Assembly: GCF_013694365.1 (NCBI RefSeq)
Contig: NZ_CP059275.1
Location: 2,005,001-2,069,000, forward strand
Source of the DNA: Limosilactobacillus reuteri
Lineage (GTDB): Bacteria; Bacillota; Bacilli; Lactobacillales; Lactobacillaceae
Reading direction: 5' to 3'
DNA: 64,000 nt
Under the pieces are notes generated by a model. That model was given only the letters and a program-made list of their open reading frames with translations, was not told the DNA's origin and made no database searches. Below are positions 3,024 to 41,336 of the stretch, one piece after another. Position 1 is the first letter of the stretch. The number at the start of each line of letters is the position of its first letter. The translations under genes and the position numbers were made by a program.

Positions 3024-4976
3024 ATGAATACAAAAATCGATACTGCAAAAAGTAAACAGCATGTTGCCCGTTCCCGTTTTGCCTATTCAATGGGAGCCTT
3101 CGGGCATGATGTCTTTTATGCTTTACTTTCAACGTATTTCATTATGTATGTTACTGGACACTTATTCAATTCTAGTAACAAAGCATTCAACAATCACATG
3201 GTTTTATGGGTTACATCAATTATCGCTGTATTACGAATTGTGGAGTTGTTAGTTGACCCATTAATTGGAAACGCAATTGATCGTACTAACACACGTTGGG
3301 GTAAATTTAAGCCGTGGGTTGTCGGTGGTGGAATCATTTCAGCAATTATTTTAGCCATCTTATTCACCCCAATGGGCGGTTTAAGTCTTTCTAATCCTTA
3401 CCTATACCTATTGATCTTTGCTATTTTATATATCATTATGGATATCTTCTATTCATTTAATGATGTTGCCTTTTGGTCAATGATTCCTGCGCTATCATTT
3501 GATTCACATGAACGTGATAAAATAGCTACTTTTGCGCGGGTTGGTTCTACTGTTGGAGGAAATATTGTTGGTTTTGTTATTATGCCAATGGTTTTATTCT
3601 TCTCAGCAAATCAAAATGGCGGTACCGGTGATGATCGTGGTTGGTTTATTTTTGCTGCAATTGCCGCTGCTGTTGCTGCTATTACTGCTGTTGGTGTCGG
3701 GCTTGGTACTCATGAAGAAAAGTCATTGCTTCGTGAAAACAAAGAACAAACTAAACTAAAAGACGTTTATAAAATTCTTGTCAAAAATGACCAATTATTC
3801 GCTATAGCTCTCTCATATCTATTCTATACAACAGGAATCACATTAGTTAACAGTATGGAGCTTTACTACTTTACTTATATTTTAGGTGATTCAAAGGCTT
3901 TCTCTATTCTAGGTGGATTAAACACTGTTATTGGTGTTATTTCAGTTCTTACTTTCCCTCTCTTTACTGGTAAAATTAGTCGGCGTAAATTATTTTACGG
4001 GTCAGTTTCAGTACTTTTCCTTGGCTTATTAATCTTTGCATTTGCTGGTAAATCACTCATTTTAGTTTTAGTTGGTGCAGAATTATTCTTCATTCCACAA
4101 CCATTAGTATTTTTAGTTGTTTTAATGACTATTACTGATTCTGTTGAATATGGTCAATTAAAATTAGGACACCGTGACGAATCACTTACATTATCAGTTC
4201 GTCCACTGCTAGATAAGTTCGCTGGTGCTGTTTCTGGATGGATTATTGGACCAACTACTATTATTGCTGGAATGACTGCTGGTGCCACTGCAGCAACAGT
4301 TACTGCTGCAGGTGCTGCTAAGTTTAAGCTAGTAATGTTCCTAGCCCCTGCTATCTTGATCCTCATTAGTGTATTTATCTTTGCAAAAAAGGTTAAACTT
4401 GATGAAAAGATGCACGCCAAGATCGTTGCTGAACTTGAAAAGACTTGGGGAGATCACCTTGAAGATGCTGACAGCGACAACCCTCAAACAGTATCTGTTT
4501 CTACCCCACAACCTGGCGTTACTGATATTACATCACCAGTTGCCGGTACACTTGTTAACTTAAAAGACGTTAACGATGAAAACTTTGCTTCTGGGAACAT
4601 GGGTAAAGGATTCGCTATAAAACCATCTGATGGTAAAGTAATTGCTCCATTTAGCGGAACAGTACGAGCAACTTTCTCTACTCGTCACGCAATCGGGCTT
4701 GAATCTGACAATGGTATTATGTTACTGATCCACGTTGGTATTGATACTGTTAAGCTTCGTGGTACTGGATTCATTAGTTACTTTGATAAGGATCAACACT
4801 TTAACAAAGGTGACGAATTAATGGAATTCTGGGACCCGGCAATCAAGAAAGCTGGCCTTGATGATACTGTCATGGTAACAGTTACTAACAGTAAAGACTT
4901 CGATATTAAATTATTGAAAGATGCTGGTGAAAAGGTAACCACTATTGATATCGTCATGGAAGTTACTAAAAAGTAA
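3024..4976 (+). CDS. lacS: Lactose/galactoside permease with C-terminal PTS EIIA domain
   Basis: 650-residue LacS-type protein: an N-terminal glycoside-pentoside-hexuronide permease (residues ~10-460, about 12 membrane helices, opening RFAYSMGAFGHDVFY) fused to a cytosolic EIIA-Glc-like domain (~490-650). The EIIA domain carries the phosphorylatable histidine in LLIHVGIDTV (His570) and the partner histidine in STRHAIG (His555). LacS imports lactose or related galactosides by H+ symport or exchange, and HPr-dependent phosphorylation of EIIA modulates transport. A raffinose or other oligosaccharide substrate is possible. The start at 3024 follows AAAGGAG with almost no spacing, so the exact start is uncertain. 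No beta-galactosidase gene is present nearby. Confidence 0.9.
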   Translation: MNTKIDTAKSKQHVARSRFAYSMGAFGHDVFYALLSTYFIMYVTGHLFNSSNKAFNNHMVLWVTSIIAVLRIVELLVDPLIGNAIDRTNTRWGKFKPWVVGGGIISAIILAILFTPMGGLSLSNPYLYLLIFAILYIIMDIFYSFNDVAFWSMIPALSFDSHERDKIATFARVGSTVGGNIVGFVIMPMVLFFSANQNGGTGDDRGWFIFAAIAAAVAAITAVGVGLGTHEEKSLLRENKEQTKLKDVYKILVKNDQLFAIALSYLFYTTGITLVNSMELYYFTYILGDSKAFSILGGLNTVIGVISVLTFPLFTGKISRRKLFYGSVSVLFLGLLIFAFAGKSLILVLVGAELFFIPQPLVFLVVLMTITDSVEYGQLKLGHRDESLTLSVRPLLDKFAGAVSGWIIGPTTIIAGMTAGATAATVTAAGAAKFKLVMFLAPAILILISVFIFAKKVKLDEKMHAKIVAELEKTWGDHLEDADSDNPQTVSVSTPQPGVTDITSPVAGTLVNLKDVNDENFASGNMGKGFAIKPSDGKVIAPFSGTVRATFSTRHAIGLESDNGIMLLIHVGIDTVKLRGTGFISYFDKDQHFNKGDELMEFWDPAIKKAGLDDTVMVTVTNSKDFDIKLLKDAGEKVTTIDIVMEVTKK

Positions 4977-5243
4977 ATGAATAAAACATTTATGAGCGGC
5001 TATTACCAAGGTGTCATCGAAACAGCCCCTACTACTCTTTCTGCTGCTAAAACAGAACAGTTAGCAATTACGATGACAATCCTCCATTTACGTCATGCTG
5101 GAATAAACATTACATCAATCCATGATTTTCTTGTCAACGATCTTCATGCAAATGAACGCCTTGTAAATAAGTATATTAATTTAAATGCTGATGGGTTAGA
5201 AACTATTCAGGCCCAAGTTATAGCAATCGCTTTCAACCAATAA
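4977..5243 (+). CDS. Hypothetical protein, 88 aa
   Basis: Small soluble-looking protein (starts MNKTFMSGYYQG, ends AIAFNQ). I do not recognise the family. It is mostly helical in appearance, with no signal peptide, membrane segment or metal-binding motif. Its ATG directly abuts the lacS stop codon with no ribosome binding site, so its real neighbour is unknown. Confidence 0.55.
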   Translation: MNKTFMSGYYQGVIETAPTTLSAAKTEQLAITMTILHLRHAGINITSIHDFLVNDLHANERLVNKYINLNADGLETIQAQVIAIAFNQ

Positions 5244-5378
5244 AAATCATAACCACCCGTCAAACGGGTGGTTTGCACATCGGCTATAAGCCGATAATAA
5301 AAGCCGGCGTCTCAAGGCGCTGGCTTTCGCTTTGCTCAAGCCAAAATGCTCTGACTACTTTGCCACCGCTTCGGTGCA
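5244..5378 (-). mobile_element. IS200-type right end, inverted
   Basis: Reads on the minus strand as the region downstream of the IS200 transposase at 53183-53641: the CACCGC..GCGGTG hairpin, then GAGACGCCGGCTT. It continues further than the copies at 13583 and 53642, into two more hairpins: ATCGGCT..AGCCGAT around 5279-5296 and ACCACCCGT..ACGGGTGGT around 5252-5272. The second, followed by T-rich sequence on the minus strand, looks terminator-like. No protein is encoded. Confidence 0.6.
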
Positions 5379-5505
5379 GTACTTTGCCTTAGACTTCCTT
5401 CAGATTCCACCTCGCAGTGGACACCCTTGTCCTCAGCTCATGGTTCCGACTACTACGGCCCATAGCGGACTCTCACCGCCTAGCTAATACCCATGCCAGG
5501 CGCAC
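5379..5505 (-). mobile_element. Group II intron 5' end, inverted (127 bp)
   Basis: On the minus strand this begins GTGCGCCTGGCATGGG. GTGCG at the first nucleotides is the group II intron 5' boundary consensus. It then follows domain I as seen contiguously at 24592-25025. It stops after 127 bp. Other 5'-end copies are at 8087-8213, 20013-20210, 29298-29422 and 43291-43415. Confidence 0.8.
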
Positions 5506-5565
5506 AAGAAAAACGACCTCATCCAAAACTGAACAAGGTCGCCATGGTAGCTTGTATGAATAAAA

Positions 5566-5900: not shown

Positions 5901-7376
5901 ATGTCACAGCTCATGGCATTAACATGGACAATTATTTGGTGGTGTTTGCTACTGGTTATTCTCGTCAATGAAATTGCGGCCATTTATACTGTTTTCCGTG
6001 AAAAGCGGGATATTGCTGCAACTTGGGCATGGTTATTGGTGCTAACGCTGATTCCTGGTTTTGGCTTTATATTATATGCATTCTTTGGACGAAAATTACC
6101 ACATAAACAATTAGCCCGAATAAAATCCCAAACGCAACTAAAATTAAAACAAGCACTAGAAAGGCAGAAGCAACAATTCATCAATATGCCGAAGCCTAAA
6201 GATCAAACCGTCCAGATTTATCGGCGGACCATCATGCTTTTTCAAAGTATTGATGACTCATTTTTAACGCGGCACAATGCCGTTAATATTTTTACAAATG
6301 GTAATGCGCTTTTTAAGAAAATGTTTGATGATATTGCAGCAGCAAAAAAGAGTATCCATATTGAGTTTTATACAATTTATAATGATCAAATTGGTAATGA
6401 ATTACGGACGTTACTTGAACAAAAGGCCGCTGAGGGAGTAGAAGTGCGAGTTCTCTACGATTCATGGGGGTCGATGGGAGTCTGGCCAAGTTTTTATGAT
6501 CATTTACGTGAAGTCGGTGGTTATGCGGCCCCGTTCCTGATGTCGCGAAGTAACTTCTTTGATTTTCGGATAAACTACCGTGACCACCGGAAAATCATTG
6601 TTATTGATGGTGAGATTGGGTATGTTGGTGGTTTTAATGTTGGCGATCAATACCTAGGACGCGTTCCTAAATTTGGCCCATGGCGTGATACCCACCTTCG
6701 AATTGTCGGTGGTGGCGTTTATGGTCTTCAGCGACGGTTTATCGGCGACTGGAATGCATCAATGAAAAAGGATGAAGATAAGATTGTGCATTACCATCCT
6801 TACTTTCAACCAATTAGAGTTCATGGGGACGTTGCATTGCAGACTGTCTCTAGTGGTCCTGAAGCGCCATTGGAAAAAATTAAAATGGGGTATTTACGTC
6901 TAATTAATGCAGCGCAGGACCATATTTGGATCCAAACTCCCTATCTGATCCCCGACGATAGTATATTGGATGCGTTAAAAGTGGCAGCTCATTCAGGAAT
7001 CGATGTACGGATAATGATTCCTTCAATGCCAGATCATGCTTTTGTATATCGGGCAACGCAGTATTATGCTCGTGAGCTCGCTAATCATGGTGTAACAATT
7101 TATTACTATCAAAAAGGTTTCCTTCATGCCAAAACAATGATGATTGATGGTCGGATGGCTTCTGTTGGATCTGCTAACCTTGACTTTCGGAGTTTTAAAT
7201 TAAACTTCGAAATTAATGCCTTTATTTACAATCAAAATACGGTAGACGATCTTGAGCGAATTTTTGTTAATGATATTCGTAACTGTCGGGTGATTACACC
7301 AGCAATGTTTGCAGAGCAACCACGCTGGTTGAAGTTTAAGCAAACAGTGTCACGTCTGCTGTCCCCAATTTTATAA
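5901..7376 (+). CDS. cls: Cardiolipin synthase
   Basis: 491 residues. Two N-terminal membrane helices (~10-60) precede two phospholipase D domains. Both HKD active-site motifs are intact: HRKIIVIDGEIGYVGG (His229) and HAKTMMIDGRMASVGSAN (His409). The enzyme condenses two phosphatidylglycerol molecules into cardiolipin and glycerol at the cytoplasmic membrane. Length and architecture match Firmicute Cls proteins. The ATG directly follows unrelated repeat DNA and the stop codon directly abuts the next ATG, so promoter and operon context are lost. Confidence 0.93.
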   Translation: MSQLMALTWTIIWWCLLLVILVNEIAAIYTVFREKRDIAATWAWLLVLTLIPGFGFILYAFFGRKLPHKQLARIKSQTQLKLKQALERQKQQFINMPKPKDQTVQIYRRTIMLFQSIDDSFLTRHNAVNIFTNGNALFKKMFDDIAAAKKSIHIEFYTIYNDQIGNELRTLLEQKAAEGVEVRVLYDSWGSMGVWPSFYDHLREVGGYAAPFLMSRSNFFDFRINYRDHRKIIVIDGEIGYVGGFNVGDQYLGRVPKFGPWRDTHLRIVGGGVYGLQRRFIGDWNASMKKDEDKIVHYHPYFQPIRVHGDVALQTVSSGPEAPLEKIKMGYLRLINAAQDHIWIQTPYLIPDDSILDALKVAAHSGIDVRIMIPSMPDHAFVYRATQYYARELANHGVTIYYYQKGFLHAKTMMIDGRMASVGSANLDFRSFKLNFEINAFIYNQNTVDDLERIFVNDIRNCRVITPAMFAEQPRWLKFKQTVSRLLSPIL

Positions 7377-7961
7377 ATGGCAGAAATATATTTACGACGC
7401 GCCCAGCTTCAAGATTTAACGGCGATTATGAAAATAATTGATGATGCAAAAGAGCTTCTAAAGAAAAATGGTAGTCCGCAATGGCAAAACGGTTATCCAG
7501 ATCAGGAAACCTTTACTCAAGATATTGTGATGCAAACAAACTGGATATTAATTAATGATAATAAAGTAGTGGCTACTGCGACTCTTCAACTTACACCCGA
7601 ACCAACCTACCGCAATATTACACAGGGACAGTGGCAACAACCAGATGAGCCTTATGCTACCATCCACCGGGTAGCTATCAGCAGTAATTATCAGGGCCAA
7701 GGACTTAGTAAATTGCTATTTTCTAACTTGCTAACAGTTGGCCAAATGCAAGGAATTAAGAATTTTCGGGTTGATACTCACCGCAGCAATAAAGCGATGC
7801 AGCACATTGCCGAAAATTTTAACTTTAAGAAACGAGGAATCATTAAAGTTAATGACCAAAATGATCCCGAGCGATTAGCCTATGAACTAAACTTAGGAAG
7901 CCATCATAAGCTTACCCGAATCAATAATAATTTTATGCAACCATTGATTGATAAGCTATAG
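7377..7961 (+). CDS. GNAT-family N-acetyltransferase
   Basis: 194-residue GNAT protein. It shows the strand-turn VVATATLQL, the central IHRVAISSNYQGQGLSKLL with the acetyl-CoA pyrophosphate-binding Q-G-Q-G-L loop (motif A), and the following NFRVDTHRSNKAMQ segment (motif B). It probably acetylates a small molecule or protein amine using acetyl-CoA; the substrate is not predictable. Complete at both ends. The start abuts the cls stop codon. Confidence 0.82.
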   Translation: MAEIYLRRAQLQDLTAIMKIIDDAKELLKKNGSPQWQNGYPDQETFTQDIVMQTNWILINDNKVVATATLQLTPEPTYRNITQGQWQQPDEPYATIHRVAISSNYQGQGLSKLLFSNLLTVGQMQGIKNFRVDTHRSNKAMQHIAENFNFKKRGIIKVNDQNDPERLAYELNLGSHHKLTRINNNFMQPLIDKL

Positions 7962-11014: not shown

Positions 11015-11025
11015 AGGACAAAGAG

Positions 11026-11142
11026 TGTGGTGATGATGGCTTGAAGGATACACCTGTACCCATGCCGAACACAGAAGTTAAGCTTCAACACGCCGAAAGT
11101 AGTTGGGGGATCGCTCCCTGCGAGGATAGGACGTTGCCACGC
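11026..11142 (+). rRNA. rrf: 5S rRNA, copy 1
   Basis: 117-nt 5S rRNA with the conserved CCGAACACAGAAGTTAAGC core and closing helix TGTGGTG..GCCACGC. Confidence 0.95.
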
Positions 11143-11145
11143 TAG

Positions 11146-11262
11146 TGTGGTGATGATGGCTTGAAGGATACACCTGTACCCATGCCGAACACAGAAGTTA
11201 AGCTTCAACACGCCGAAAGTAGTTGGGGGATCGCTCCCTGCGAGGATAGGACGTTGCCACGC
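11146..11262 (+). rRNA. rrf: 5S rRNA, copy 2
   Basis: Identical to copy 1 and only 3 nt after it. Tandem 5S genes without a spacer are not a natural lactobacillus arrangement and fit an assembled duplication. Confidence 0.93.
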
Positions 11263-11264
11263 TT

Positions 11265-11337
11265 GGAGGATTAGCTCAGTTGGGAGAGCATCTGCCTTAC
11301 AAGCAGGAGGTCACAGGTTCGAGCCCTGTATCCTCCA
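11265..11337 (+). tRNA. tRNA-Val (TAC)
   Basis: Complete cloverleaf, acceptor GGAGGAT/ATCCTCC, anticodon TAC. First gene of an array with almost no spacers. Confidence 0.95.
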
Positions 11338-11410
11338 GAGCCGTTAGCTCAGTTGGTAGAGCATCTGACTTTTAATCAGAGGGTCGACGGTTCAAGCCCG
11401 TCACGGCTCA
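11338..11410 (+). tRNA. tRNA-Lys (TTT)
   Basis: Complete cloverleaf; acceptor GAGCCGT/ACGGCTC; anticodon TTT in CTTTTAA. Abuts tRNA-Val with zero spacing. Confidence 0.95.
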
Positions 11411-11483
11411 GCCGACTTAGCTCAGTTGGCAGAGCACCTGTCTTGTAAACAGGGGGTCGGAGGTTCGAATCCTCTAGTCGGCA
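11411..11483 (+). tRNA. tRNA-Thr (TGT)
   Basis: Complete cloverleaf; acceptor GCCGACT/AGTCGGC; anticodon TGT. Confidence 0.95.
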
Positions 11484-11484
11484 T

Positions 11485-11556
11485 GCGGAAGTAGTTCAGT
11501 GGTAGAACATCACCTTGCCATGGTGGGGGTCGCGGGTTCGAATCCCGTCTTCCGCT
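11485..11556 (+). tRNA. tRNA-Gly (GCC), copy 1
   Basis: Complete cloverleaf; acceptor GCGGAAG/CTTCCGC; anticodon GCC. Followed by a 16-nt spacer before tRNA-Leu, the only natural-looking spacer in the array. Confidence 0.95.
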
Positions 11557-11572
11557 TTGCCAGTTCTATAAT

Positions 11573-11658
11573 GCCGGGGTGGCGGAATTGGCAGACGCAC
11601 AGGACTTAAAATCCTGCGGTTAGTGATAACCGTACCGGTTCGATCCCGGTCCTCGGCA
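11573..11658 (+). tRNA. tRNA-Leu (TAA), copy 1
   Basis: Class II tRNA with a long variable arm; anticodon TAA; acceptor GCCGGGG paired with CCTCGGC (one G-T pair). Confidence 0.95.
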
Positions 11659-11660
11659 CT

Positions 11661-11732
11661 GCGGAAGTAGTTCAGTGGTAGAACATCACCTTGCCATGGT
11701 GGGGGTCGCGGGTTCGAATCCCGTCTTCCGCT
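11661..11732 (+). tRNA. tRNA-Gly (GCC), copy 2
   Basis: Exact repeat of the gene at 11485, now directly abutting the next tRNA. Confidence 0.93.
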
Positions 11733-11818
11733 GCCGGGGTGGCGGAATTGGCAGACGCACAGGACTTAAAATCCTGCGGTTAGTGATAACCGTACCGGTT
11801 CGATCCCGGTCCTCGGCA
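11733..11818 (+). tRNA. tRNA-Leu (TAA), copy 2
   Basis: Exact repeat of the gene at 11573 without the spacer that precedes copy 1. Confidence 0.93.
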
Positions 11819-11892
11819 GCACCCATAGCGCAATTGGATAGAGTGTCTGACTACGAATCAGAAGGTTGAAGGTTCGACTCCTTCTGGGTGCA
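11819..11892 (+). tRNA. tRNA-Arg (ACG)
   Basis: Complete cloverleaf; acceptor GCACCCA/TGGGTGC; anticodon ACG (A34 edited to inosine in bacteria). Confidence 0.95.
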
Positions 11893-11966
11893 CGGGAAAT
11901 AGCTCAGCTTGGTAGAGCACCTGGTTTGGGACCAGGGGGTCGCAGGTTCGAATCCTGTTTTCCCGA
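11893..11966 (+). tRNA. tRNA-Pro (TGG)
   Basis: Complete cloverleaf; acceptor CGGGAAA/TTTCCCG; anticodon TGG. Confidence 0.95.
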
Positions 11967-12040
11967 CGCGGTGTAGCTCAGCTGGCTAGAGCGTCCGGTT
12001 CATACCCGGGAGGTCGAGGGTTCGATCCCCCCCGCCGCGA
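11967..12040 (+). tRNA. tRNA-Met (CAT), elongator
   Basis: Anticodon CAT with a fully paired acceptor (CGCGGTG/CGCCGCG), so it is not the initiator. It resembles the Bacillus elongator tRNA-Met. Confidence 0.85.
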
Positions 12041-12114
12041 GGACCTTTAGCTCAGTTGGTTAGAGCAAGCGGCTCATAACCGCCCGGTCGTAGGTTCGAG
12101 TCCTACAAGGTCCA
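12041..12114 (+). tRNA. tRNA-Ile2 (CAT, probable lysidine-modified)
   Basis: Anticodon CAT with acceptor GGACCTT/AAGGTCC and an anticodon stem like Bacillus tRNA-Ile2. TilS probably converts C34 to lysidine so that it reads ATA. The identity is inferred from resemblance; general callers would label it Met. Confidence 0.75.
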
Positions 12115-12117
12115 TCA

Positions 12118-12205
12118 GGAGGATTACCCAAGTGGCTGAAGGGGGCGGTCTTGAAAACCGCTAGGCCGTGAGAGCGACGCGAGGGTTCGAATCCCTCATC
12201 CTCCT
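12118..12205 (+). tRNA. tRNA-Ser (TGA)
   Basis: Class II tRNA with a long variable arm; anticodon TGA; acceptor GGAGGAT/ATCCTCC. The base at the discriminator position is T in this window, whereas serine tRNAs normally carry G there. Confidence 0.9.
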
Positions 12206-12279
<74 letters not shown>

Positions 12280-12354
12280 GGTCCGTTGGTCTAGTTGGTT
12301 TAGGACGCATCCCTGTCACGGATGAGATCACGAGTTCGAGTCTCGTACGGACCG
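12280..12354 (+). tRNA. tRNA-Asp (GTC), copy 1
   Basis: Complete cloverleaf; acceptor GGTCCGT/ACGGACC, discriminator G; anticodon GTC. Confidence 0.95.
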
Positions 12355-12427
12355 GGCTCGGTAGCTCAGTTGGTAGAGCAACGGATTGAAGCTCCGTGTG
12401 TCGGCGGTTCGATTCCGTCCCGCGCCA
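12355..12427 (+). tRNA. tRNA-Phe (GAA)
   Basis: Anticodon GAA in TTGAAGC. The acceptor GGCTCGG faces CCGCGCC, giving one T-C mismatch in the middle of the stem, which is unusual and may be a sequence error. Confidence 0.88.
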
Positions 12428-12498
12428 GCGGGTATAGTTTAGTGGTAAAACCACAGCCTTCCAAGCTGTTGTCGCGAGTTCGATTCTCGTTACCCGCT
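12428..12498 (+). tRNA. tRNA-Gly (TCC)
   Basis: Acceptor GCGGGTA/TACCCGC; anticodon TCC. Differs from the copy at 18309 at a few positions. Confidence 0.93.
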
Positions 12499-12573
<75 letters not shown>

Positions 12574-12661
12574 GGAGAAGTACTCAAGTGGCTGAAGAGG
12601 CGCCCCTGCTAAGGGTGTAGATCGCGCAAGCGGTGCGAGGGTTCGAATCCCTCCTTCTCCG
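12574..12661 (+). tRNA. tRNA-Ser (GCT)
   Basis: Class II tRNA with a long variable arm; anticodon GCT; acceptor GGAGAAG/CTTCTCC; discriminator G. Confidence 0.93.
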
Positions 12662-12733
12662 GACCCGTTAGTCAAGTGGTTAAGACACCAGCCTTTCACG
12701 CTGGTATCGTGGGTTCAAATCCCGCACGGGTCA
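12662..12733 (+). tRNA. tRNA-Glu (TTC), copy 1
   Basis: Acceptor GACCCGT/ACGGGTC; anticodon TTC. The copies at 18387 and 18539 begin GGCCCGT instead. Confidence 0.93.
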
Positions 12734-12807
<74 letters not shown>

Positions 12808-12882
12808 GGTCCGTTGGTCTAGTTGGTTTAGGACGCATCCCTGTCACGGATGAGATCACGAGTTCGAGTCTCGTACGGACCG
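12808..12882 (+). tRNA. tRNA-Asp (GTC), copy 2
   Basis: Exact repeat of 12280-12354. The next base begins the ATG of an IS66 gene, an unnatural zero-gap junction. Confidence 0.92.
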
Positions 12883-13709: not shown

Positions 13710-13877
13710 ATGATTTATGATGCAGAAGCTGATGGTGGAATTCCCTTTAAGACACCGGAATTAAATATTGACTGGCCAATTGAATTTGATAAGGCCATTA
13801 CTTCCGAAAAGGATGCCGCACAACTAACCTTAACTGAATTTGAAAAAGACAACCCATTTGTTTATGGTGAAATTTAA
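13710..13877 (+). pseudogene. rmlC: RmlC C-terminal fragment (dTDP-4-dehydrorhamnose 3,5-epimerase)
   Basis: 55 residues (MIYDAEADGGIPF.. ending NPFVYGEI). The stretch PELNIDWPIE, then the Lys-Asp-rich SEKDAAQLTLTEFE, match the C-terminus of RmlC, whose full length is ~190 aa. The cupin core with the catalytic His and Tyr is missing. It lies next to rmlB as in rhamnose operons, but the junctions are artificial, so this could be the clipped edge of a contig rather than natural decay. Confidence 0.75.
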
Positions 13878-14918
<1,041 letters not shown>

Positions 14919-15425
14919 TTGCTAAATAAACATGAAATTGTATATAATTTTAAGCAGTCCAATATCACTGATCAAGCCGTTGTAAATGAGAAGATTAGCG
15001 CCCTTAAGCCGGAAGTAATCTATCATTGTGCAGTTGATAACGCAGAAGATGTTGCCAAAGACCTCAATTGGCAAGTAAACGCAGATGGTACGCGCAATGT
15101 TGCCGAGTCTGCTAAAAGAGTTGGCGCTAAGATGGTTTACATTAGTACCGATTATGTCTTTGATGGGACCAATGAAGGCGAGTATGAAGTTGATGCGCCC
15201 ACTAATCCGAAAAACGAATATGGCAAAGCTAAACTTGCCGGTGAAAAAGCAATCCAAGAAACCTTAGCTGATTACTACATCATTCGCACATCCTGGGTCT
15301 TTGGTAAATATGATAAGAATTTTGTCTACACAATGCTTCGTCTTGCCAAAGATCATGATCAGCTCATCGTCGTCAACGATCAATTTGGTCGCCCAACAGG
15401 ACTAGAAACCTGGCAGAATTTATGA
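14919..15425 (+). pseudogene. rmlD: RmlD fragment 1 (dTDP-4-dehydrorhamnose reductase, middle part)
   Basis: 168 residues from a TTG codon. It lacks the N-terminal nucleotide-binding GxxGxxG but retains YHCAVDNAEDVAKD, the STDYVFDGTNEGEY region and the catalytic YGKAKLAGEKAI. The end is out of frame: after QFGRPT the frame should read roughly W-T-R-x-L-A-E-F-M, but a base appears to be missing, giving LETWQNL and a stop codon. With fragment 2 it forms one broken rmlD. Confidence 0.85.
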
Positions 15426-15689
15426 ATGACTTACTTAGTCGATCATGATCAGCCATTCGGTACCTATCAGCTATCTAACGAGAATAGTTGTTCCTGGTAC
15501 GACTTCGCCACCGAGATCTTAAAGGATAAAGATGTTGAAGTCGCTCCTGTTGATTCTTCAGCATATCCGGCCAAAGCTTATCGCCCTCGCCATTCAGTTA
15601 TGAGTTTGAAGAAGGCCGAAGATACTTGCTTTGAGATTGTGGATTGGCAGACTGCGTTGAGTGAGTTTATGGAAGAAATAGGGGAGTAG
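15426..15689 (+). pseudogene. rmlD: RmlD fragment 2 (C-terminal part)
   Basis: 87 residues starting MTYLVDHDQPFGTYQLSN, the C-terminal third of RmlD. In an intact gene this follows AEF directly. The four bases ATGA at the end of fragment 1 and at the start of this one are the same native bases written twice, because the two frames overlap by ATGA. Confidence 0.85.
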
Positions 15690-15922
15690 ACCCGAAATGT
15701 CAATTTAAGTTAGAAAAAAAGTAGTTGCTCATCAGTGACATACTTCATGAATACCTCGTAAGGTGTTTGATAGCCCAATGACTTGCGAGGAATGTTATTC
15801 CGGTAACTCATTATTTGAGCAACCTCTTCATCAGCTAGGTGGCGGAGATCGCGGCCTTTGTGGAGCCCATCGCGCCGCAGAAGGCCGTTGTTGTTCTCGT
15901 TTAACCCCCGTTGGTTAGGTGC
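15690..15922 (-). pseudogene. IS30-B transposase C-terminal fragment, inverted, with right end
   Basis: Minus-strand reading gives the IS30 C-terminus (NQRGLNENNNGLLRRDGLHKG .. TDEQLLFF) and then the right terminal repeat ending near 15697 (AATTTAAGTTAGAAAAAAAG read outward). It mirrors 15925-16137 exactly around a CC centre at 15923-15924. The DE-motif glutamate of the DDE triad (LNENNNG) is retained. Confidence 0.8.
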
Positions 15923-15924
15923 CC

Positions 15925-16137
15925 GCACCTAACCAACGGGGGTTAAACGAGAACAACAACGGCCTTCTGCGGCGCGATGGGCTCCACAAAGGCCGCGATC
16001 TCCGCCACCTAGCTGATGAAGAGGTTGCTCAAATAATGAGTTACCGGAATAACATTCCTCGCAAGTCATTGGGCTATCAAACACCTTACGAGGTATTCAT
16101 GAAGTATGTCACTGATGAGCAACTACTTTTTTTCTAA
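15925..16137 (+). pseudogene. IS30-B transposase C-terminal fragment
   Basis: 71 codons encoding the IS30 DDE domain end: NQRGLNENNNGLLRR containing the catalytic Glu, then SLGYQTPYEVFMKYV. 5' truncated at the palindrome centre. A middle part of probably the same element is at 56250-56801. Confidence 0.8.
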
Positions 16138-16264
16138 CCTTGGTTAATAGTCGTAACCTCTGCTTGAAGGTTCGTTCAGAATCGGTAGGGTAAGTATGCG
16201 ATGTTTCCAGAATCTCCCACTTCAAGCATTAAACCGTAGGTTTAGCTAAGTGGGAGTAGTTCAA
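16138..16264 (+). mobile_element. IS605-type right end with subterminal hairpin (possible omega-RNA 3' part)
   Basis: 127-bp sequence, also at 27823-27949 with one base different. It ends in a 9-bp stem CTCCCACTT / AAGTGGGAG (16214-16222 with 16248-16256) enclosing a smaller TAAAC/GTTTA stem, and finishes TAGTTCAA. A subterminal hairpin and a TTCAA-type end at the cleavage site are usual for IS200/IS605 right ends. In TnpB elements this region is transcribed as the guide RNA scaffold. The family link to the TnpB pieces here is inferred. Confidence 0.55.
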
Positions 16265-18379: not shown

Positions 18380-18386
18380 TTAATAT

Positions 18387-18458
18387 GGCCCGTTAGTCAA
18401 GTGGTTAAGACACCAGCCTTTCACGCTGGTATCGTGGGTTCAAATCCCGCACGGGTCA
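18387..18458 (+). tRNA. tRNA-Glu (TTC)
   Basis: Anticodon TTC; acceptor GGCCCGT/ACGGGTC with one G-T pair. A 5-nt spacer follows. Confidence 0.93.
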
Positions 18459-18463
18459 TTTTT

Positions 18464-18536
18464 GGAGGATTAGCTCAGTTGGGAGAGCATCTGCCTTACA
18501 AGCAGGGGGTCACAGGTTCGAGCCCTGTATCCTCCA
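18464..18536 (+). tRNA. tRNA-Val (TAC)
   Basis: Same as 11265 except GGGGG in place of GGAGG after the anticodon arm. Confidence 0.93.
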
Positions 18537-18538
18537 TT

Positions 18539-18610
18539 GGCCCGTTAGTCAAGTGGTTAAGACACCAGCCTTTCACGCTGGTATCGTGGGTTCAAATCCC
18601 GCACGGGTCA
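18539..18610 (+). tRNA. tRNA-Glu (TTC), repeat
   Basis: Exact repeat of 18387-18458, now abutting the next tRNA directly. Confidence 0.92.
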
Positions 18611-18683
18611 GGAGGATTAGCTCAGTTGGGAGAGCATCTGCCTTACAAGCAGGGGGTCACAGGTTCGAGCCCTGTATCCTCCA
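18611..18683 (+). tRNA. tRNA-Val (TAC), repeat
   Basis: Exact repeat of 18464-18536 without spacer on either side. Confidence 0.92.
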
Positions 18684-22777: not shown

Positions 22778-22781
22778 GTTC

Positions 22782-22898: not shown

Positions 22899-22913
22899 CT
22901 CTTTGTCCCTTCA

Positions 22914-26408: not shown

Positions 26409-26439
26409 GTTGTCGAACCGCCGTATACGGAACCGTACG
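26409..26439 (+). mobile_element. Group II intron 3' region, cut short
   Basis: After the RT stop codon: GTTGTCGAACCGCCGTATACGG.., the start of domain V, broken off in the middle of its stem at the join to the second RT copy. The full 3' end is at 63868-63984. Confidence 0.75.
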
Positions 26440-27955: not shown

Positions 27956-28954
27956 GTGGAACAACTCTATGACCAGTTTCAACGAAAAATTGATTATTTA
28001 CGATTATCAATAACAGACCGGTGTAATTTACGGTGTGTTTACTGTATGCCAGAAGAAGGATTGAAGTTCTTCCCTAAAGATAAAATTATGTCCCAAGATG
28101 AAATTATTCAGTTAGTGCAAAATTTCGCCAAAATGGGGATTACGAAAGTCCGCCTAACTGGTGGCGAACCATTATTACGGCGGGACTTACCCGAGATTAT
28201 CCAGCGTATTCGGCAAATTTCTGAAATTAACGACATTTCAATTACGACGAACGGGACGGCCCTGAAGTATCAAGCAAAGAAATTGAAGGAAGCGGGTCTT
28301 GATCGCCTTAATATTTCTCTTGATACTTTTAATCCAGCAGTATATAAAAAGATGACCCGTGGCGGAAATATCAAGCATGTCCTGCAAGGGATCGCGGCAG
28401 CTGAACGAGAGGGTTTTAAGATTATTAAGGTCAACACCGTAGTCGTGCGGGGCGAAAATGACCAGGAAGTCATGGATTTTATTAATTATACGAAAGACCA
28501 CCCGATCAATGTGCGCTTTATTGAATACATGCCAATCGGGCAAGAGATTAGCGATTGGAAAAAAGAATATGTTCCGCTAACCAGCATTTTTGATAAGTGT
28601 CGCGAGGCGGGGTTAACATATAAACCGTTATCATTGCCCGGTAATGGTCCTGCCGATAACTATCAGATTAAGGGTTACCGAGGTAGCTTCGGTTTGATTC
28701 ACCCAATTTCAGAGCGGTTTTGTGAATCTTGTGACCGTTTGCGAATTACCTCCGATGGTTACGTCAAAGCCTGCTTATATTGGAATGAAGAACTGGATAT
28801 CCGACCGGTCATCAATGACTTTGCGGCATTTAAGAAAGTAGTGCAGAAGGCGCTAAATAATAAGCCGTTAAATCATGAAATGGCAATGAAAAATGTTCAT
28901 CAGATTATTAATCCAGCGCCAACGTGGCGGCATATGAGTCAGATAGGTGGGTAA
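27956..28954 (+). CDS. moaA: GTP 3',8-cyclase MoaA (molybdenum cofactor synthesis)
   Basis: 332 residues. The radical SAM cluster motif CNLRCVYC (Cys23, Cys27, Cys30), the RLTGGEPLLR SAM-binding motif, and the C-terminal second cluster CESCDRLRITSDGYVKAC with three cysteines are all present. MoaA with MoaC turns GTP into cyclic pyranopterin monophosphate. The open frame from 27935 includes IS605 end DNA, so GTG at 27956 is the better start. It implies that the strain has or had a molybdoenzyme such as nitrate reductase; no other moa gene is in the window. Confidence 0.93.
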   Translation: MEQLYDQFQRKIDYLRLSITDRCNLRCVYCMPEEGLKFFPKDKIMSQDEIIQLVQNFAKMGITKVRLTGGEPLLRRDLPEIIQRIRQISEINDISITTNGTALKYQAKKLKEAGLDRLNISLDTFNPAVYKKMTRGGNIKHVLQGIAAAEREGFKIIKVNTVVVRGENDQEVMDFINYTKDHPINVRFIEYMPIGQEISDWKKEYVPLTSIFDKCREAGLTYKPLSLPGNGPADNYQIKGYRGSFGLIHPISERFCESCDRLRITSDGYVKACLYWNEELDIRPVINDFAAFKKVVQKALNNKPLNHEMAMKNVHQIINPAPTWRHMSQIGG

Positions 28955-29293
28955 ATGGCAGCTGATCAAAATACCGGCGCTCCTTTTTCGCCGACGGAAA
29001 ACCGAGTAATGGATGCTCTGCAGTCGGTAATTGACCCAGAATTAGGGGTAGATATTGTTAACTTAGGGTTGATTTATGATGTTCAAGTTGATGACCAACA
29101 ATTATGCGTGATTACCATGACGCTAACGACAATGGGGTGTCCGGTTAGTAACGTCTTGAGTCAACAAATAATTGAACAAGCTTTGGCAACTGACGGGGTA
29201 GCAAAATGTAAGATTAACTTGGTCTGGGAACCAGTGTGGAGTCCAAGCATGATGACTCGCTATGCTAAGATTGCCCTGGGAATTCATGAATAA
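28955..29293 (+). CDS. DUF59/MIP18-family metal-sulfur cluster assembly factor
   Basis: 112 residues. VIDPELGVDIVNLGLIYDV and the TMTLTTMGCPVSNVL segment with its single conserved Cys match the DUF59 (SufT/PaaD-like) family, which assists Fe-S cluster maturation. A link to MoaA, an Fe-S enzyme, would make sense and the genes may be true neighbours, but the stop/start junction has zero spacing like the artificial ones. Confidence 0.87.
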   Translation: MAADQNTGAPFSPTENRVMDALQSVIDPELGVDIVNLGLIYDVQVDDQQLCVITMTLTTMGCPVSNVLSQQIIEQALATDGVAKCKINLVWEPVWSPSMMTRYAKIALGIHE

Positions 29294-31338: not shown

Positions 31339-31482
31339 TGAGGCTGGGAAAAAACTCCTAGTCCAAATAAAAACCGGATGATGAATTTTTTGAACAATTC
31401 ATCATCCGGTTTTTATGTACACAGGAAATCGTTCCTGATATGATGTAATTACCCCTAAAAACAACCAAAGGGAGCGATTTTC
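31339..31482 (+). mobile_element. IS1182-B left end with ribosome binding site
   Basis: Terminal repeat GAGGCTGGGAAAAAACT, hairpin ACCGGATGATGAA..TTCATCATCCGGT, and a full leader with AAAGGGAGCG 11 nt before ATG at 31483. The region GTTCCTGATATGATGTAAT could supply a -10 box (TATGAT). Confidence 0.8.
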
Positions 31483-32173
31483 ATGTATCAAAATTATACC
31501 ATAGGGCAAACCGAATTCGTACTAAACTATAACTATGATTTACCACAGAATCATGTTGCACGATTAATTAGTGATTTTGTCGACTCGATTCCACAAGATG
31601 TGCTATTAGAAGATTCGGGAGCGGCTACTGGCCGCCCTTCATCACATCCAGCAATTATGCTTAAGATTCTCTTGTTTGCCTACTCACGTCAAACTTATTC
31701 TGGAAGAAAGATTGAAATGATGTTGGATGAGAACCTGCCAATGCGTTGGTTAGCCCATGATTATACTTATAGCTACCATACCATCAATAACTTTCGACGC
31801 AGTCAGCACGCTAGTAAGCTAATTAAACATGCCTTTGTTTACTTTACCATGGCTTTGAAAGATCACGGACTAATTCAAAATGATGCAGTTTTTATCGATG
31901 GGACCAAGGTGGAAGCCGATGCTAATAAATATTCATTTACTTGGCGGCGGGCGGTTGAAAAGTATCACGCTAAGTTAAGAGAAAAGACGAGTAAGCTTTA
32001 TGAGGAACTAGTAGAAAAACAAGTGGTGCAAGAAATGGCACCCGAGCTGGTTACTTCTGCCGAAGGCATGGAAGTAATGGAACAAGAACTTGCGGAGAAA
32101 ATCACTAAGTTGGATGAAGAGATTAAGCAAGAACCAAAAATCATCAAAGGTGGTTCAGTTAGAAAACGGCGCC
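31483..32173 (+). pseudogene. IS1182-B transposase, N-terminal copy (truncated)
   Basis: First ~230 codons of the element B transposase with proper leader, broken at GTTAGAAAACGGCGC where a second copy starts at its ATG (32174). Exact duplicate of 32174-32864. Confidence 0.85.
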
Positions 32174-33859
32174 ATGTATCAAAATTATACCATAGGGCAA
32201 ACCGAATTCGTACTAAACTATAACTATGATTTACCACAGAATCATGTTGCACGATTAATTAGTGATTTTGTCGACTCGATTCCACAAGATGTGCTATTAG
32301 AAGATTCGGGAGCGGCTACTGGCCGCCCTTCATCACATCCAGCAATTATGCTTAAGATTCTCTTGTTTGCCTACTCACGTCAAACTTATTCTGGAAGAAA
32401 GATTGAAATGATGTTGGATGAGAACCTGCCAATGCGTTGGTTAGCCCATGATTATACTTATAGCTACCATACCATCAATAACTTTCGACGCAGTCAGCAC
32501 GCTAGTAAGCTAATTAAACATGCCTTTGTTTACTTTACCATGGCTTTGAAAGATCACGGACTAATTCAAAATGATGCAGTTTTTATCGATGGGACCAAGG
32601 TGGAAGCCGATGCTAATAAATATTCATTTACTTGGCGGCGGGCGGTTGAAAAGTATCACGCTAAGTTAAGAGAAAAGACGAGTAAGCTTTATGAGGAACT
32701 AGTAGAAAAACAAGTGGTGCAAGAAATGGCACCCGAGCTGGTTACTTCTGCCGAAGGCATGGAAGTAATGGAACAAGAACTTGCGGAGAAAATCACTAAG
32801 TTGGATGAAGAGATTAAGCAAGAACCAAAAATCATCAAAGGTGGTTCAGTTAGAAAACGGCGCCGTCGTTTTCTAAAAAAACTTCGCCATCAATTAAGCA
32901 ACGACCTAATTCCGCGTGCCAAAAAGTATGAACGTGCCGAAGATATCTTCCAAGGTCGTAATAGCTATTCCAAGACTGATCATGATGCGACTTTTATGTG
33001 TATGAAGGAAGATCCGATGATGAATCGGGAGTTAAAGCCCGGCTATAACCTGCAAATCGCTACACATAAGCAATTTGTCCTTGATTACGGGCTCTTTTCA
33101 AATCCAACTGACACCAGGACCTTAGTGCCATTCCTTACCCAGTTTCATGCTTTAGATTTCTTTAAGCATATCGTTGCCGATGCCGGTTATGGTAGTGAGT
33201 ACAATTACACAATGATTCTTGATCAGTTTGAAAAGCAGCCTGTTATTCCATACACAACTTATCAAAAGGAACAGAAACATAAATTTAAAAACGATCCAAC
33301 TAAATCACAAAATTGGCAGTATAATGCCGAAGATGATTACTACATCGATCATTTAGGAGTTCGCTTTAGCTTTTATCGGTATAGTAGGCGAACCGATAAA
33401 TATGGTTTCGAACGTGATTTCAAACTCTATCGAGCGGATAAGCACCAACTGTCAGAACAATTGGATGAGTTGGCAAAAACACCAAGTGGTCGGCAACGCT
33501 ATATGCAGGTTAACCCAACGTGGAATTATTACAAGGCTAAAGTAAAAGCAACCCTCTCAAGTGACGAAGGCAAGGCAATTTATCGTCGACGAAAGTTCGA
33601 CGTTGAGCCAGTCTTTGGTCACATGAAGAGGGATTTTGGCATACGCCGAACTCATCTACGCGGACAACGGGCTGTGGAAAATGACATTGGGCTAGTCTTG
33701 ATGGCATTAAATCTAACGAAATTTGGTCAATCAATTAGTCGATTGGCGACTAATTTTATAAATAATTTAAAATCCGGACTACGATTTTTGAATCGATCAA
33801 AAATCATAGTCCGGATTTTACTGTTAGAGAACCAAGAATTAATAGTTAATTCCCAGTCT
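32174..33859 (+). CDS. IS1182-type family transposase, element B
   Basis: About 560 codons. Same architecture as element A with DGTKVEADANKYSF, VADAGYGSEYNY and RRRKFDVEPVFGHMKRDFG. No stop codon occurs before the right terminus (TTAATTCCCAGTCTC): the frame runs through the terminator hairpin and the terminal repeat and would end in flanking DNA. In the window it continues by chance into the repeated C-terminus that follows. The longer open frame from 32090 to 34843 is a product of these joins. Confidence 0.88.
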
Positions 33860-34836
33860 CGCCATCAATTAAGCAACGACCTAATTCCGCGTGCCAAAAA
33901 GTATGAACGTGCCGAAGATATCTTCCAAGGTCGTAATAGCTATTCCAAGACTGATCATGATGCGACTTTTATGTGTATGAAGGAAGATCCGATGATGAAT
34001 CGGGAGTTAAAGCCCGGCTATAACCTGCAAATCGCTACACATAAGCAATTTGTCCTTGATTACGGGCTCTTTTCAAATCCAACTGACACCAGGACCTTAG
34101 TGCCATTCCTTACCCAGTTTCATGCTTTAGATTTCTTTAAGCATATCGTTGCCGATGCCGGTTATGGTAGTGAGTACAATTACACAATGATTCTTGATCA
34201 GTTTGAAAAGCAGCCTGTTATTCCATACACAACTTATCAAAAGGAACAGAAACATAAATTTAAAAACGATCCAACTAAATCACAAAATTGGCAGTATAAT
34301 GCCGAAGATGATTACTACATCGATCATTTAGGAGTTCGCTTTAGCTTTTATCGGTATAGTAGGCGAACCGATAAATATGGTTTCGAACGTGATTTCAAAC
34401 TCTATCGAGCGGATAAGCACCAACTGTCAGAACAATTGGATGAGTTGGCAAAAACACCAAGTGGTCGGCAACGCTATATGCAGGTTAACCCAACGTGGAA
34501 TTATTACAAGGCTAAAGTAAAAGCAACCCTCTCAAGTGACGAAGGCAAGGCAATTTATCGTCGACGAAAGTTCGACGTTGAGCCAGTCTTTGGTCACATG
34601 AAGAGGGATTTTGGCATACGCCGAACTCATCTACGCGGACAACGGGCTGTGGAAAATGACATTGGGCTAGTCTTGATGGCATTAAATCTAACGAAATTTG
34701 GTCAATCAATTAGTCGATTGGCGACTAATTTTATAAATAATTTAAAATCCGGACTACGATTTTTGAATCGATCAAAAATCATAGTCCGGATTTTACTGTT
34801 AGAGAACCAAGAATTAATAGTTAATTCCCAGTCTCT
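33860..34836 (+). pseudogene. IS1182-B transposase, C-terminal copy
   Basis: Exact repeat of the C-terminal ~320 codons (from RHQLSNDLIPRAKKYE) including hairpin and right terminus. Joined in frame to the preceding copy. No start of its own. Confidence 0.86.
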
Positions 34837-39960: not shown

Positions 39961-39961
39961 T

Positions 39962-40351
39962 GCAGTAAATCAGTTCTTTATAAATTTACGCCAGAAAATG
40001 GGCACAGATGCTTACTATCGCATCTTTAAGACAATAACCTCTGACAACGGTTCAGAATTTAGTGAGTTAACACAAGTTCACGATCATATTTTCTATGCTG
40101 ATCCGTATTCCCCTTGGGAACGTGGATCCAATGAGATCAATAACCGGTTTCTCCGCAAAGAGATTACCAAAGGTGAAGCTATAAATAACTATAGTAGTGC
40201 TCAGATCATAGCGACTAATGATTGGATGAATCACTATCCACGAGCTATGTTTAATGGATATTCGTCAATGGATATCTATCGTAAGGCCTTCTACCAAGAG
40301 ATATCACAGCTCCATCAACCAATAATCAATTGGTCAGTATTATTTATTTGA
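39962..40351 (+). pseudogene. IS30-A transposase, C-terminal part, copy 1
   Basis: 129 codons in frame: AVNQFFINLRQKMG, SDNGSEFSELTQ (second Asp of the DDE core), YADPYSPWERGSNEINNRFLRK (Glu in the SNE motif; written YADPYSPWERGSNEI and NNRFLRK) to WSVLFI stop. 5' truncated. Confidence 0.86.
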
Positions 40352-40394
40352 GTCCAGTGGCTAACTTATTCTTGAAATTTAGGAAGAAGAAAAT
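40352..40394 (+). mobile_element. IS30-A right terminus
   Basis: CCAGTGGCTAACTTATTCTTGAAATTTAGGA; the part AGTGGCTAACTTATTCT is the inverted partner of AGAATGAAGTTAGCCAC at the left end. Confidence 0.72.
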
Positions 40395-40784
40395 GCAGTA
40401 AATCAGTTCTTTATAAATTTACGCCAGAAAATGGGCACAGATGCTTACTATCGCATCTTTAAGACAATAACCTCTGACAACGGTTCAGAATTTAGTGAGT
40501 TAACACAAGTTCACGATCATATTTTCTATGCTGATCCGTATTCCCCTTGGGAACGTGGATCCAATGAGATCAATAACCGGTTTCTCCGCAAAGAGATTAC
40601 CAAAGGTGAAGCTATAAATAACTATAGTAGTGCTCAGATCATAGCGACTAATGATTGGATGAATCACTATCCACGAGCTATGTTTAATGGATATTCGTCA
40701 ATGGATATCTATCGTAAGGCCTTCTACCAAGAGATATCACAGCTCCATCAACCAATAATCAATTGGTCAGTATTATTTATTTGA
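40395..40784 (+). pseudogene. IS30-A transposase, C-terminal part, copy 2
   Basis: Base-for-base repeat of 39962-40351, ending at the base before the ATG of an unrelated gene. Confidence 0.85.
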
Positions 40785-41336
40785 ATGATATACTATATTC
40801 CAGAAAAAGAAGTCTTAATCGATAGCAACTTTAATCCATTTGCAAACATCAGCAACTATCAACAAGAATTAGAAGAGCTGCTTGCAAACCAATATGGATT
40901 ATCTGGAGACGATCTTAAAGGCGCGGCTTTCCTATCACTTTATCAATTGAAAATGAGTGATTATGGGCTTAAATTATCAAGTGTAAATGATGCAATCAAT
41001 AAGGTTGTTGCATTCTTAAACGAGGAGCATGGCCTGAGTGTTAAACAGGACAAAGCTAATGAACCATTGATTAAAATCTTAGCATTAATTGCTACAAATA
41101 TCCGGCGTCCATGGAACCGGGGATGGTCTAATTATGAATTGTTAAGGACCAAGGATATTGCCAAATTAGTGTCTGAAATGGAAATTAATTTAGAAGAACC
41201 TAAACTGTCAAGTGAGATTGTTAGTGGAATTCAAGTGGAAAGCATTAACCGTGATGAGTTGCTTAACTTCCTTGAAAATAGTAATTTACCGCCAAAAGTA
41301 ATCTCGAAGCTGTATAAACAAGCCGAAGAATTATAA
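40785..41336 (+). CDS. Hypothetical protein, 183 aa
   Basis: Soluble, largely helical (MIYYIPEKEVLIDSNFNPF.. to VISKLYKQAEEL). SLYQLKMSDYGLKLSSVNDAI and IRRPWNRGWSNYELLRTKDIAKLV are its most distinctive parts, written here within short pieces. No signal peptide or catalytic motif. I do not recognise it. Confidence 0.55.
   Translation: MIYYIPEKEVLIDSNFNPFANISNYQQELEELLANQYGLSGDDLKGAAFLSLYQLKMSDYGLKLSSVNDAINKVVAFLNEEHGLSVKQDKANEPLIKILALIATNIRRPWNRGWSNYELLRTKDIAKLVSEMEINLEEPKLSSEIVSGIQVESINRDELLNFLENSNLPPKVISKLYKQAEEL

What the first reader, a model, noticed from the sequence alone, without database searches (positions are those of the whole stretch)
4974..40787. Unrelated genes abut stop-to-start with zero spacing: the window is a concatenation of clipped genes
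At 4976|4977, 7376|7377, 13071|13072, 13877|13878, 14918|14919, 15425|15426, 16553|16554, 16916|16917, 17294|17295, 17834|17835, 22129|22130, 22309|22310, 23499|23500, 28954|28955, 37406|37407, 37532|37533, 37673|37674 and 40784|40785 a stop codon is followed directly by ATG, GTG or TTG of a different gene, with no ribosome binding site or intergenic DNA. Genes also begin at the base after a tRNA or IS end (664, 12883, 18756). Nature does not do this repeatedly, so gene order here is not evidence of operons.
Basis: seen in the sequence. Interest (0 to 1): 0.9.

Follow-up and report, generated by a model that had tools for sequence, protein, structure and literature searches.

The report
Genome record glued from clipped genes
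The bacterial 'chromosome' behind this window is a computer-made string of separately cut-out genes, RNAs and repeats rather than real continuous DNA, so spacing, strand and operon structure read from it are meaningless.

Summary
All 18 listed junctions read stop|start as stated. The window is bases 2005001-2069000 of a single 2,085,667-base contig. In 14 sampled stretches of the rest, 218 of 260 genes end directly on a start codon and 250 of 260 lie on the + strand, against 4 of 153 and 60 of 153 in ten stretches of related genomes.

Segments compared with Limosilactobacillus relatives are mostly whole genes or tRNAs with the spacer cut away. Genes on the other strand have been turned individually. 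In one 20-kb stretch all 21 adjacent same-strand pairs keep their forward reading but stand in reversed order, and all four gene overlaps are written twice. No inversion or deletion can do that.

Exact repeats peak at 127 bases and crowd towards the end, as in a k=127 draft with contigs sorted by size. Repeats are also written out unturned beside the features they cover. Best explanation: the annotated features of a fragmented draft were exported and joined into one false chromosome. It is an artefact, not biology.

The parts
3024..4976 (+). GPH-type sugar transporter with EIIA domain, clipped at its stop
   Evidence: Pfam MFS_2 and PTS_EIIA_1; 100% to G015:C66:378-2330 minus strand
4977..5243 (+). 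88-aa gene that lies UPSTREAM of the transporter in three relatives, here placed directly downstream
   Evidence: G015:C66:2456-2722 (-), and the same arrangement in G020:C37 and G016:C22: order reversed while both read forward
5913..7376 (+). cardiolipin synthase-like gene (PLD domains)
   Evidence: Pfam; G020:C37:66181-67644 minus strand
7377..7961 (+). GNAT acetyltransferase gene; divergent from the previous gene, 139 bp apart in G020 and 138 in G016, here abutting and in the same direction
   Evidence: Pfam; G020:C37:67784-68368 plus strand, G016:C70:56552-57136 plus strand
11024..11263 (+). the same 120-base 5S rRNA piece printed twice, end to end
   Evidence: 100% direct repeat 11024-11143 / 11144-11263; 5S by Rfam
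11264..12882 (+). tRNA block: the 19-tRNA operon of L. caviae in the same order with its spacers removed, plus one extra Gly-Leu pair
   Evidence: spacers 227 bases in all in L. caviae, here 0-3 bases or slight overlaps except the 16-base Gly-Leu spacer
11485..11660 (+). Gly-Leu tRNA pair printed as one piece with its natural 16-base spacer, followed by the same two tRNAs clipped (11661-11818)
   Evidence: 176 of 176 bases identical to L. caviae G012:C17:367-542
13716..15689 (+). end of an rfbA-like gene (label recalled), an rfbB-like gene and an rfbD-like gene in two pieces, joined without spacers; a 4-base overlap is written twice at 15425|15426
   Evidence: G016:C68 910-1071, 1083-2123, 2379-2855, 2852-3115; Pfam for 13878-15689
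15696..16151 (.). touching inverted repeat, arms 228 bases, no loop
16917..18020 (+). three genes joined; in L. caviae the first two are 5 bp apart and the third 1,087 bp further on
   Evidence: G012:C1 474029-474406, 474412-474951, 476039-476224
18386..18755 (+). tRNA Glu and Val with a short spacer, then Glu and Val again abutting, then Gln running straight into an ISL3 transposase ATG at 18756
22650..22909 (.). 5S rRNA and its reverse complement, touching (loop 2)
23062..24459 (+). two genes that are neighbours in L. caviae in the opposite order, 12 bp apart, both on +
   Evidence: G012:C2:410628-411049 and 409656-410615
25025..27822 (+). group II intron reverse transcriptase, 1,384 identical bases printed twice (25025-26408, 26439-27822)
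   Evidence: Pfam RVT_1, GIIM
27956..29293 (+). MoaA-like and Fe-S assembly-like genes, a true neighbour pair that lost only its 2-bp spacer
   Evidence: G015:C58:236-1234 and 1237-1575, 99%; Pfam
31482..32864 (+). 692 identical bases printed twice, end to end
32884..34835 (+). 977 identical bases printed twice, end to end
41588..43290 (.). 16S rRNA followed by a reverse-complement partial copy of itself
   Evidence: for 41588-43163; 41806-41940 against 43158-43290, minus; G000 2046588-2048163 + then 2048165-2048368 -
54164..55343 (.). touching inverted repeat, arms 590 bases, no loop
61153..61405 (.). another 5S rRNA and its reverse complement, touching (loop 1)
61604..62098 (.). touching inverted repeat, arms 247 bases, loop 1

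Best explanation
The 2,085,667-base contig is an export artefact. A Limosilactobacillus isolate was assembled into many contigs by a de Bruijn assembler with k = 127, with contigs sorted from long to short. The draft was annotated with CDS, RNA genes and repeat regions. The nucleotide sequence of each feature was then written out in coordinate order, CDS and RNAs on their coding strand and repeats on the contig strand, and joined into one false chromosome. Shown: missing spacers, per-gene turning with coordinate order kept, doubled overlaps, doubled features, the 127-base peak and its rise towards the end. Inferred: the assembler, the contig sorting, the annotation pipeline (RAST-like, recalled, because it lists repeat regions as features) and that it was an accident.
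For: Zero-gap and strand: 218 of 260 genes and 250 of 260 on + in 14 main-body stretches, against 4 of 153 and 60 of 153 in ten relative stretches (Fisher p = 5e-67 and 3e-39). Mapping: 28 of 28 segments of L012 match at least one relative, most over their whole length, with spacers missing and opposite-strand genes turned. In L085, 26 of 28 segments align end to end to L. caviae; all 21 adjacent pairs that are both + there stand in reversed order in G000 and none in the same order; the 27 junctions have gaps of 2-702 bp (23) or overlaps (4) in L. caviae; the 4 of 4 overlaps (4, 8, 11, 19 bp) are present twice. tRNA operon without spacers. The Gly-Leu tRNA piece is printed in tRNA sense in the window and in antisense between sense copies in L087 14718-15202, as expected if RNAs are turned and repeats are not. 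Touching inverted repeats (arms of 40 or more, loops up to 12 searched): 7 in the window, 17 in the last 16.7 kb, 3 in 11 earlier stretches, 0 in 15 relative stretches; loops of 0-2 in 22 of the 24 in the window and end. Exact repeats: 119 of 1,050 pairs are exactly 127 long, 8 are 130, 1 is 131. Such segments: 0-0.5 per 10 kb in the six stretches before 1.3 Mb, 18.9 in the window, 60 at the end.
Against: 42 of 260 main-body genes and 46 of 59 window genes do not show a zero gap in my crude calls; wrong ORF ends, partial genes and repeat or RNA pieces in between can explain this, but I did not resolve each. The window has stretches assigned to no feature. The excess of suffix-prefix identity of 4 or more at main-body junctions is weak (9 observed, shuffled mean 5.0, maximum 10), though 7 or more is not (3 against a mean of 0.06, maximum 2). 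Repeat pairs in the 127-base peak are not independent, and the held sample is richer near the end, which favours the rise. Only two main-body stretches (L012, L085) were mapped gene by gene to relatives. The source record, its annotation and its reads were not seen.
Confidence: 0.96

Rival explanations
1. Reads or contigs were mapped to the gene set of a reference genome and the per-gene consensus sequences were joined (reference-guided gene concatenation).
For: Would also give clipped genes on their coding strand in coordinate order.
Against: Does not predict a 127-base peak of exact repeats, touching inverted copies with 0-2-base loops, or repeats crowding towards the end; a gene in two pieces (15425) and the many mobile-element fragments fit de novo contigs better (inference).
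Confidence: 0.03
2. A real, extremely compacted chromosome with nearly all genes on one strand and no spacers.
For: The sequence as held, and estimated completeness of 100 with contamination 0.96.
Against: 21 of 21 same-strand pairs in reversed order while each gene still reads forward; overlaps present twice; long touching palindromes and doubled rRNA and tRNA; few ribosome-binding-like motifs at zero-gap sites, 24 of 269 main body and 2 of 21 window; near-identical segments (97-100%) in G015 have ordinary spacers.
Confidence: 0.002
3. Only the window (the end of the contig) is artificial: unplaced genes appended to a sound chromosome.
For: The window and the last 16.7 kb are richest in duplicated pieces.
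Against: Each of the 14 main-body stretches, from base 1 to 2.0 Mb, has many zero-gap junctions, 9 to 24 per 20 kb, and the two compared with relatives also show the turning.
Confidence: 0.005

Closest known systems
Ordinary translationally coupled gene pairs (TAATG, ATGA overlaps)
   Same: Stop and start codons lie next to each other or overlap.
   Different: In relatives the shared bases occur once and exact zero-gap pairs are rare (4 of 153); here the shared bases are written twice and most main-body genes are joined this way.
Multi-FASTA export of annotated features (CDS and RNA on coding strand, repeats as listed; recalled, no such file was examined)
   Same: Clipped features, individually turned, coordinate order kept, overlapping features repeated in full.
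   Different: Here the records were joined into one sequence and held as a one-contig genome.
Contigs of a de Bruijn assembly that share k-mer ends (recalled behaviour of such assemblers)
   Same: Many exact repeats of 127 bases, denser where pieces get short.
   Different: The contig borders are hidden because the contigs' features were run together.

Membership tests
Concatenated annotation-feature export | Segments coincide with whole genes or RNAs of relatives, spacers absent | tested here: met
   L085 26 of 28 end to end against L. caviae; L012 28 of 28 matched
Concatenated annotation-feature export | Each feature turned to its coding strand with coordinate order kept | tested here: met
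   21 of 21 adjacent ++ pairs in reversed order; window pairs at 4976 and 23499 likewise
Concatenated annotation-feature export | Bases shared by two features appear twice | tested here: met
   4 of 4 overlaps in L085; Gly-Leu tRNA pair and 5S pieces
Concatenated annotation-feature export | Feature table of the source record matches the segments | not testable with these tools
Draft de Bruijn assembly, k = 127 | Exact shared stretches of 127 bases | tested here: met
   Peak at 127 among 1,050 repeat pairs in 361 kb, fall to 1 at 131; no peak among 37 pairs in 280 kb of controls
Draft de Bruijn assembly, k = 127 | Contigs ordered long to short | tested here: inconclusive
   Density of 127-base segments rises towards the end, but the held sample is richer there
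Natural operon with coupled genes | Relatives show the same adjacency at zero gap | tested here: not met
   0 of 10 comparable window junctions and 0 of 27 in L085 after merging four in-gene cuts
Natural operon with coupled genes | Ribosome-binding-like motif before starts | tested here: not met
   First starts of called genes: 21 of 255 main body, 4 of 59 window, 64 of 152 controls; zero-gap sites 24 of 269 and 2 of 21

The most novel reading that the evidence does not exclude
This record is not alone: public genome sets hold further one-contig genomes that are joined feature exports and pass completeness checks, so some published operon, promoter or gene-strand statistics draw on sequence that never existed. 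Strand share, zero-gap share and doubled overlaps together would flag them quickly.
Probability: 0.4. Interest if true: 0.4.

Novelty: not a real feature. Interest (0 to 1): 0.25.

Why it matters
What one reads from this contig about promoters, ribosome binding sites, terminators, operons, small RNAs in spacers, strand bias, tandem repeats or palindromes is void; single-gene sequences remain usable. The genome has estimated completeness 100 and contamination 0.96, so marker-gene checks do not catch this kind of fault, while a strand and spacing check does. Other findings from the same window (doubled rRNA, spacerless tRNA arrays, giant palindromes, tandem copies) should be read first as products of the same artefact.

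Tried and rejected
Real genome compaction: rejected because genes read forward in reversed order. Appended tail only: rejected because 14 main-body stretches behave the same. Suffix-prefix identity at junctions as the main proof: weak for 4 bases or more, because only neighbours on the contig's own strand can show it; I replaced it by overlaps located through L. caviae. Automatic cutting of L085 at stop|start sites made four false cuts inside genes (32 pieces): the pieces are contiguous in L. caviae, their lengths are not multiples of three, and each joined frame is open. I merged these by hand to 28 before the final count. The sites counted and the 269 and 21 zero-gap sites were not cleaned in this way and may hold some in-gene chance sites; the 218 of 260 count goes by gene ends. 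Naming the record: one scan of named genomes returned 34 loci and not this record, so species and accession are open; three relatives were named by equal contig length (G012 L. caviae CCM 8609, G020 L. balticus BG-AF3-A, G016 L. agrestis WF-MT5-A). Plasmid and phage collections gave only partial matches to window 3000-24500, at most 10% of the query in the records listed. Three paper searches (I saw only the listings of 10 of 16, 10 of 88 and 15 of 100 papers) showed nothing on such artefacts or on this record; the one paper asked for by DOI is not held. Eight of the 18 listed junctions could not be compared on both sides with the relatives fetched (16553, 16916, 22129, 22309, 37406, 37532, 37673, 40784). 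Window 41501-64000 was not compared with the relatives at all. A 5,105-base repeat in the controls proved to be a duplication inside one stretch of G008, and most other long control pairs are the same genes in two species.
Full report
Observation. All 18 listed junctions read stop codon then ATG, GTG or TTG. A scan asking for at least 40 open codons on both sides finds 21 such sites in the window, including those 18. Genes also start on the base after a tRNA at 12883 and 18756. The claim about 664 is less exact: it follows a repeated piece (529-662), which I did not show to be an IS end.

Scale. The window is bases 2005001-2069000 of the only contig of its genome, 2,085,667 bases. I sampled the rest: ten 20-kb stretches first, four more later, about 13% of the contig. 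With crude gene calls (ORFs of at least 100 aa, both strands) 218 of 260 genes in these 14 stretches run straight into a start codon with an open frame, and 250 of 260 lie on the + strand. Ten 20-kb stretches of seven related genomes gave 4 of 153 and 60 of 153; the window gave 13 of 59 and 51 of 59 (Fisher p = 5e-67 for the main-body gaps, 3e-39 for the strands, 2e-5 for the window gaps). An earlier control set gave 7 of 118, all seven from six stretches of one shared neighbourhood. So the main body is more strictly clipped than the window that raised the question.

Comparison with relatives, main body. L012 (500001-520000) was cut at its junctions and two tRNAs into 28 segments. All 28 match a relative, most over their whole length, in the same broad order. 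At most junctions the relatives have spacers, from 15 to several hundred bases, where G000 has none, and genes on the opposite strand in the relatives have been turned. At three junctions the relatives' genes share the A of TAATG (for example G015:C1 bases 536 and 823), and G000 writes it twice. The clearest stretch is L085 (760001-780000) against L. caviae. After merging four false in-gene cuts there are 28 segments, 26 aligned end to end. L. caviae has 25 on + and 3 on -. All 21 adjacent pairs that are both + in L. caviae stand in reversed order in G000 while each gene still reads forward; none stands in the natural order. The gaps at the 27 junctions in L. caviae are 2 to 702 bp (23 junctions) or overlaps (4), none zero. 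The four overlaps (4, 8, 11 and 19 bp) are each present twice in G000. An inversion turns order and strand together; only turning each gene separately gives this.

Comparison with relatives, window. Ten of the 18 junctions could be compared on both sides. At 4976 and 23499 the genes are neighbours in relatives in the opposite order on one strand. At 7376 they are divergent, 139 bp apart. At 13071, 13877, 17294 and 28954 spacers of 46, 11, 5 and 2 bp are gone. At 14918 the aligned parts lie 255 bp apart, 43 of which are the unaligned start of the second piece. At 15425 a 4-bp overlap is written twice. At 17834 the genes are 1,087 bp apart. None of the ten has zero spacing in the relative. The other eight lacked a match on at least one side, and window 41501-64000 was not compared.

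RNA genes. The 21 tRNAs at 11264-12882 are the 19 tRNAs of one L. caviae operon in the same order; that operon has 227 bases of spacers, while here the tRNAs abut. The two extra tRNAs are informative: 11485-11660 is Gly, the natural 16-base spacer and Leu as one piece, identical to L. caviae over 176 of 176 bases, followed by Gly and Leu clipped. The same pair occurs near 1,715,000 of the contig, where the order is Pro, Leu (+), then the whole pair in reverse complement, then Gly and Glu (+). So RNAs were turned to their own strand and the two-tRNA piece was not: it behaves like an unstranded repeat feature covering two tRNAs. The same reading explains 5S rRNA printed twice in line (11024-11263) and twice head to head (22650-22909, 61153-61405), and 16S followed by an inverted part of itself.

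The tail. Touching inverted repeats with arms of at least 40 bases and loops up to 12 number 7 in the window, 17 in the last 16.7 kb, 3 in 11 earlier stretches and 0 in 15 stretches of relatives. In the window and tail 22 of 24 have loops of 0, 1 or 2 bases, which is what frame trimming of a gene running off a contig end would leave (inference). Genes on the contig's own strand would instead appear as direct doubles beside their repeat, and such doubles of 216 to 1,384 bases are present. Maximal exact repeats of 60 or more in 361 kb of G000 peak sharply at 127 bases (119 of 1,050 pairs; 63, 69, 54 and 20 at 125, 126, 128 and 129; 8 at 130, 1 at 131). In 280 kb of controls there were 37 pairs without a peak; those of 110 bases or more are mostly the same genes in two species. 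Pairs are not independent. Segments of 124-130 bases occur at 0 to 0.5 per 10 kb in the six stretches before 1.3 Mb, 0 to 4 in the eight between 1.5 and 2.0 Mb, 18.9 in the window and 60 at the end. This is the pattern of contigs from a k = 127 de Bruijn assembly sorted by size; the sample held is richer near the end, so the ordering is likely rather than proven.

Starts. A ribosome-binding-like motif precedes 21 of 255 first starts of called genes in the main body and 4 of 59 in the window, against 64 of 152 in the controls; allowing any in-frame start in the first 40 codons it is 30, 8 and 99. At zero-gap sites it is 24 of 269 and 2 of 21.

Explanation. A draft assembly was annotated with CDS, RNAs and repeats, and the sequence of each feature was written in coordinate order and joined. 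Clipping, turning, doubled overlaps, doubled features and the 127-base signature are shown; the pipeline (RAST-like, from memory, because it lists repeat regions as features) and the cause are inferred. The organism is a Limosilactobacillus near L. balticus, L. caviae and L. agrestis. The partial genome G015 is the nearest in places (97-100% in the L012 segments it matches) but about 83% in another, so it may be mixed.

Verdict. The finding is an artefact of data handling, so it scores low as biology, but it invalidates structural readings of this contig, and the genome still carries completeness 100 and contamination 0.96. Three paper searches (listings only) showed no report of it.

Noticed in passing
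window 20097-20262, 24667-24840, 62645-62817 and others: Many group II intron pieces, with a reverse transcriptase printed twice (25025-26408, 26439-27822); the strain seems rich in group II introns.
   Followed up: partly
window 1987-2822 and 50867-51612: Rib/alpha-like cell-wall repeat pieces (label recalled) in direct and inverted copies; perhaps one long surface protein broken over short contigs.
   Followed up: no
window 8201-11015: A gene with 63-base repeats (glucan-binding-like, label recalled) in two pieces plus an inverted repeat piece; a long repetitive gene probably broken by the assembly.
   Followed up: no
window 14919-15689 and 16266-16916: An rfbD-like gene and an EamA transporter each present as two joined pieces, as if broken by a frame change or contig end in the draft.
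   Followed up: partly
G015 (loci L065, L066, L090): A partial genome (75% complete, 1.3 Mb) with 97-100% identity to G000 in several segments and ordinary spacers there, but about 83% in another.
   Followed up: partly
L011 1-144: The contig begins with a 72-base piece and its reverse complement, touching; the first three bases are ATG.
   Followed up: no
L074 (G008:C1:400001-420000) 177-5281 and 14282-19386: A 5,105-base exact duplication in a related genome used as a control.
   Followed up: no
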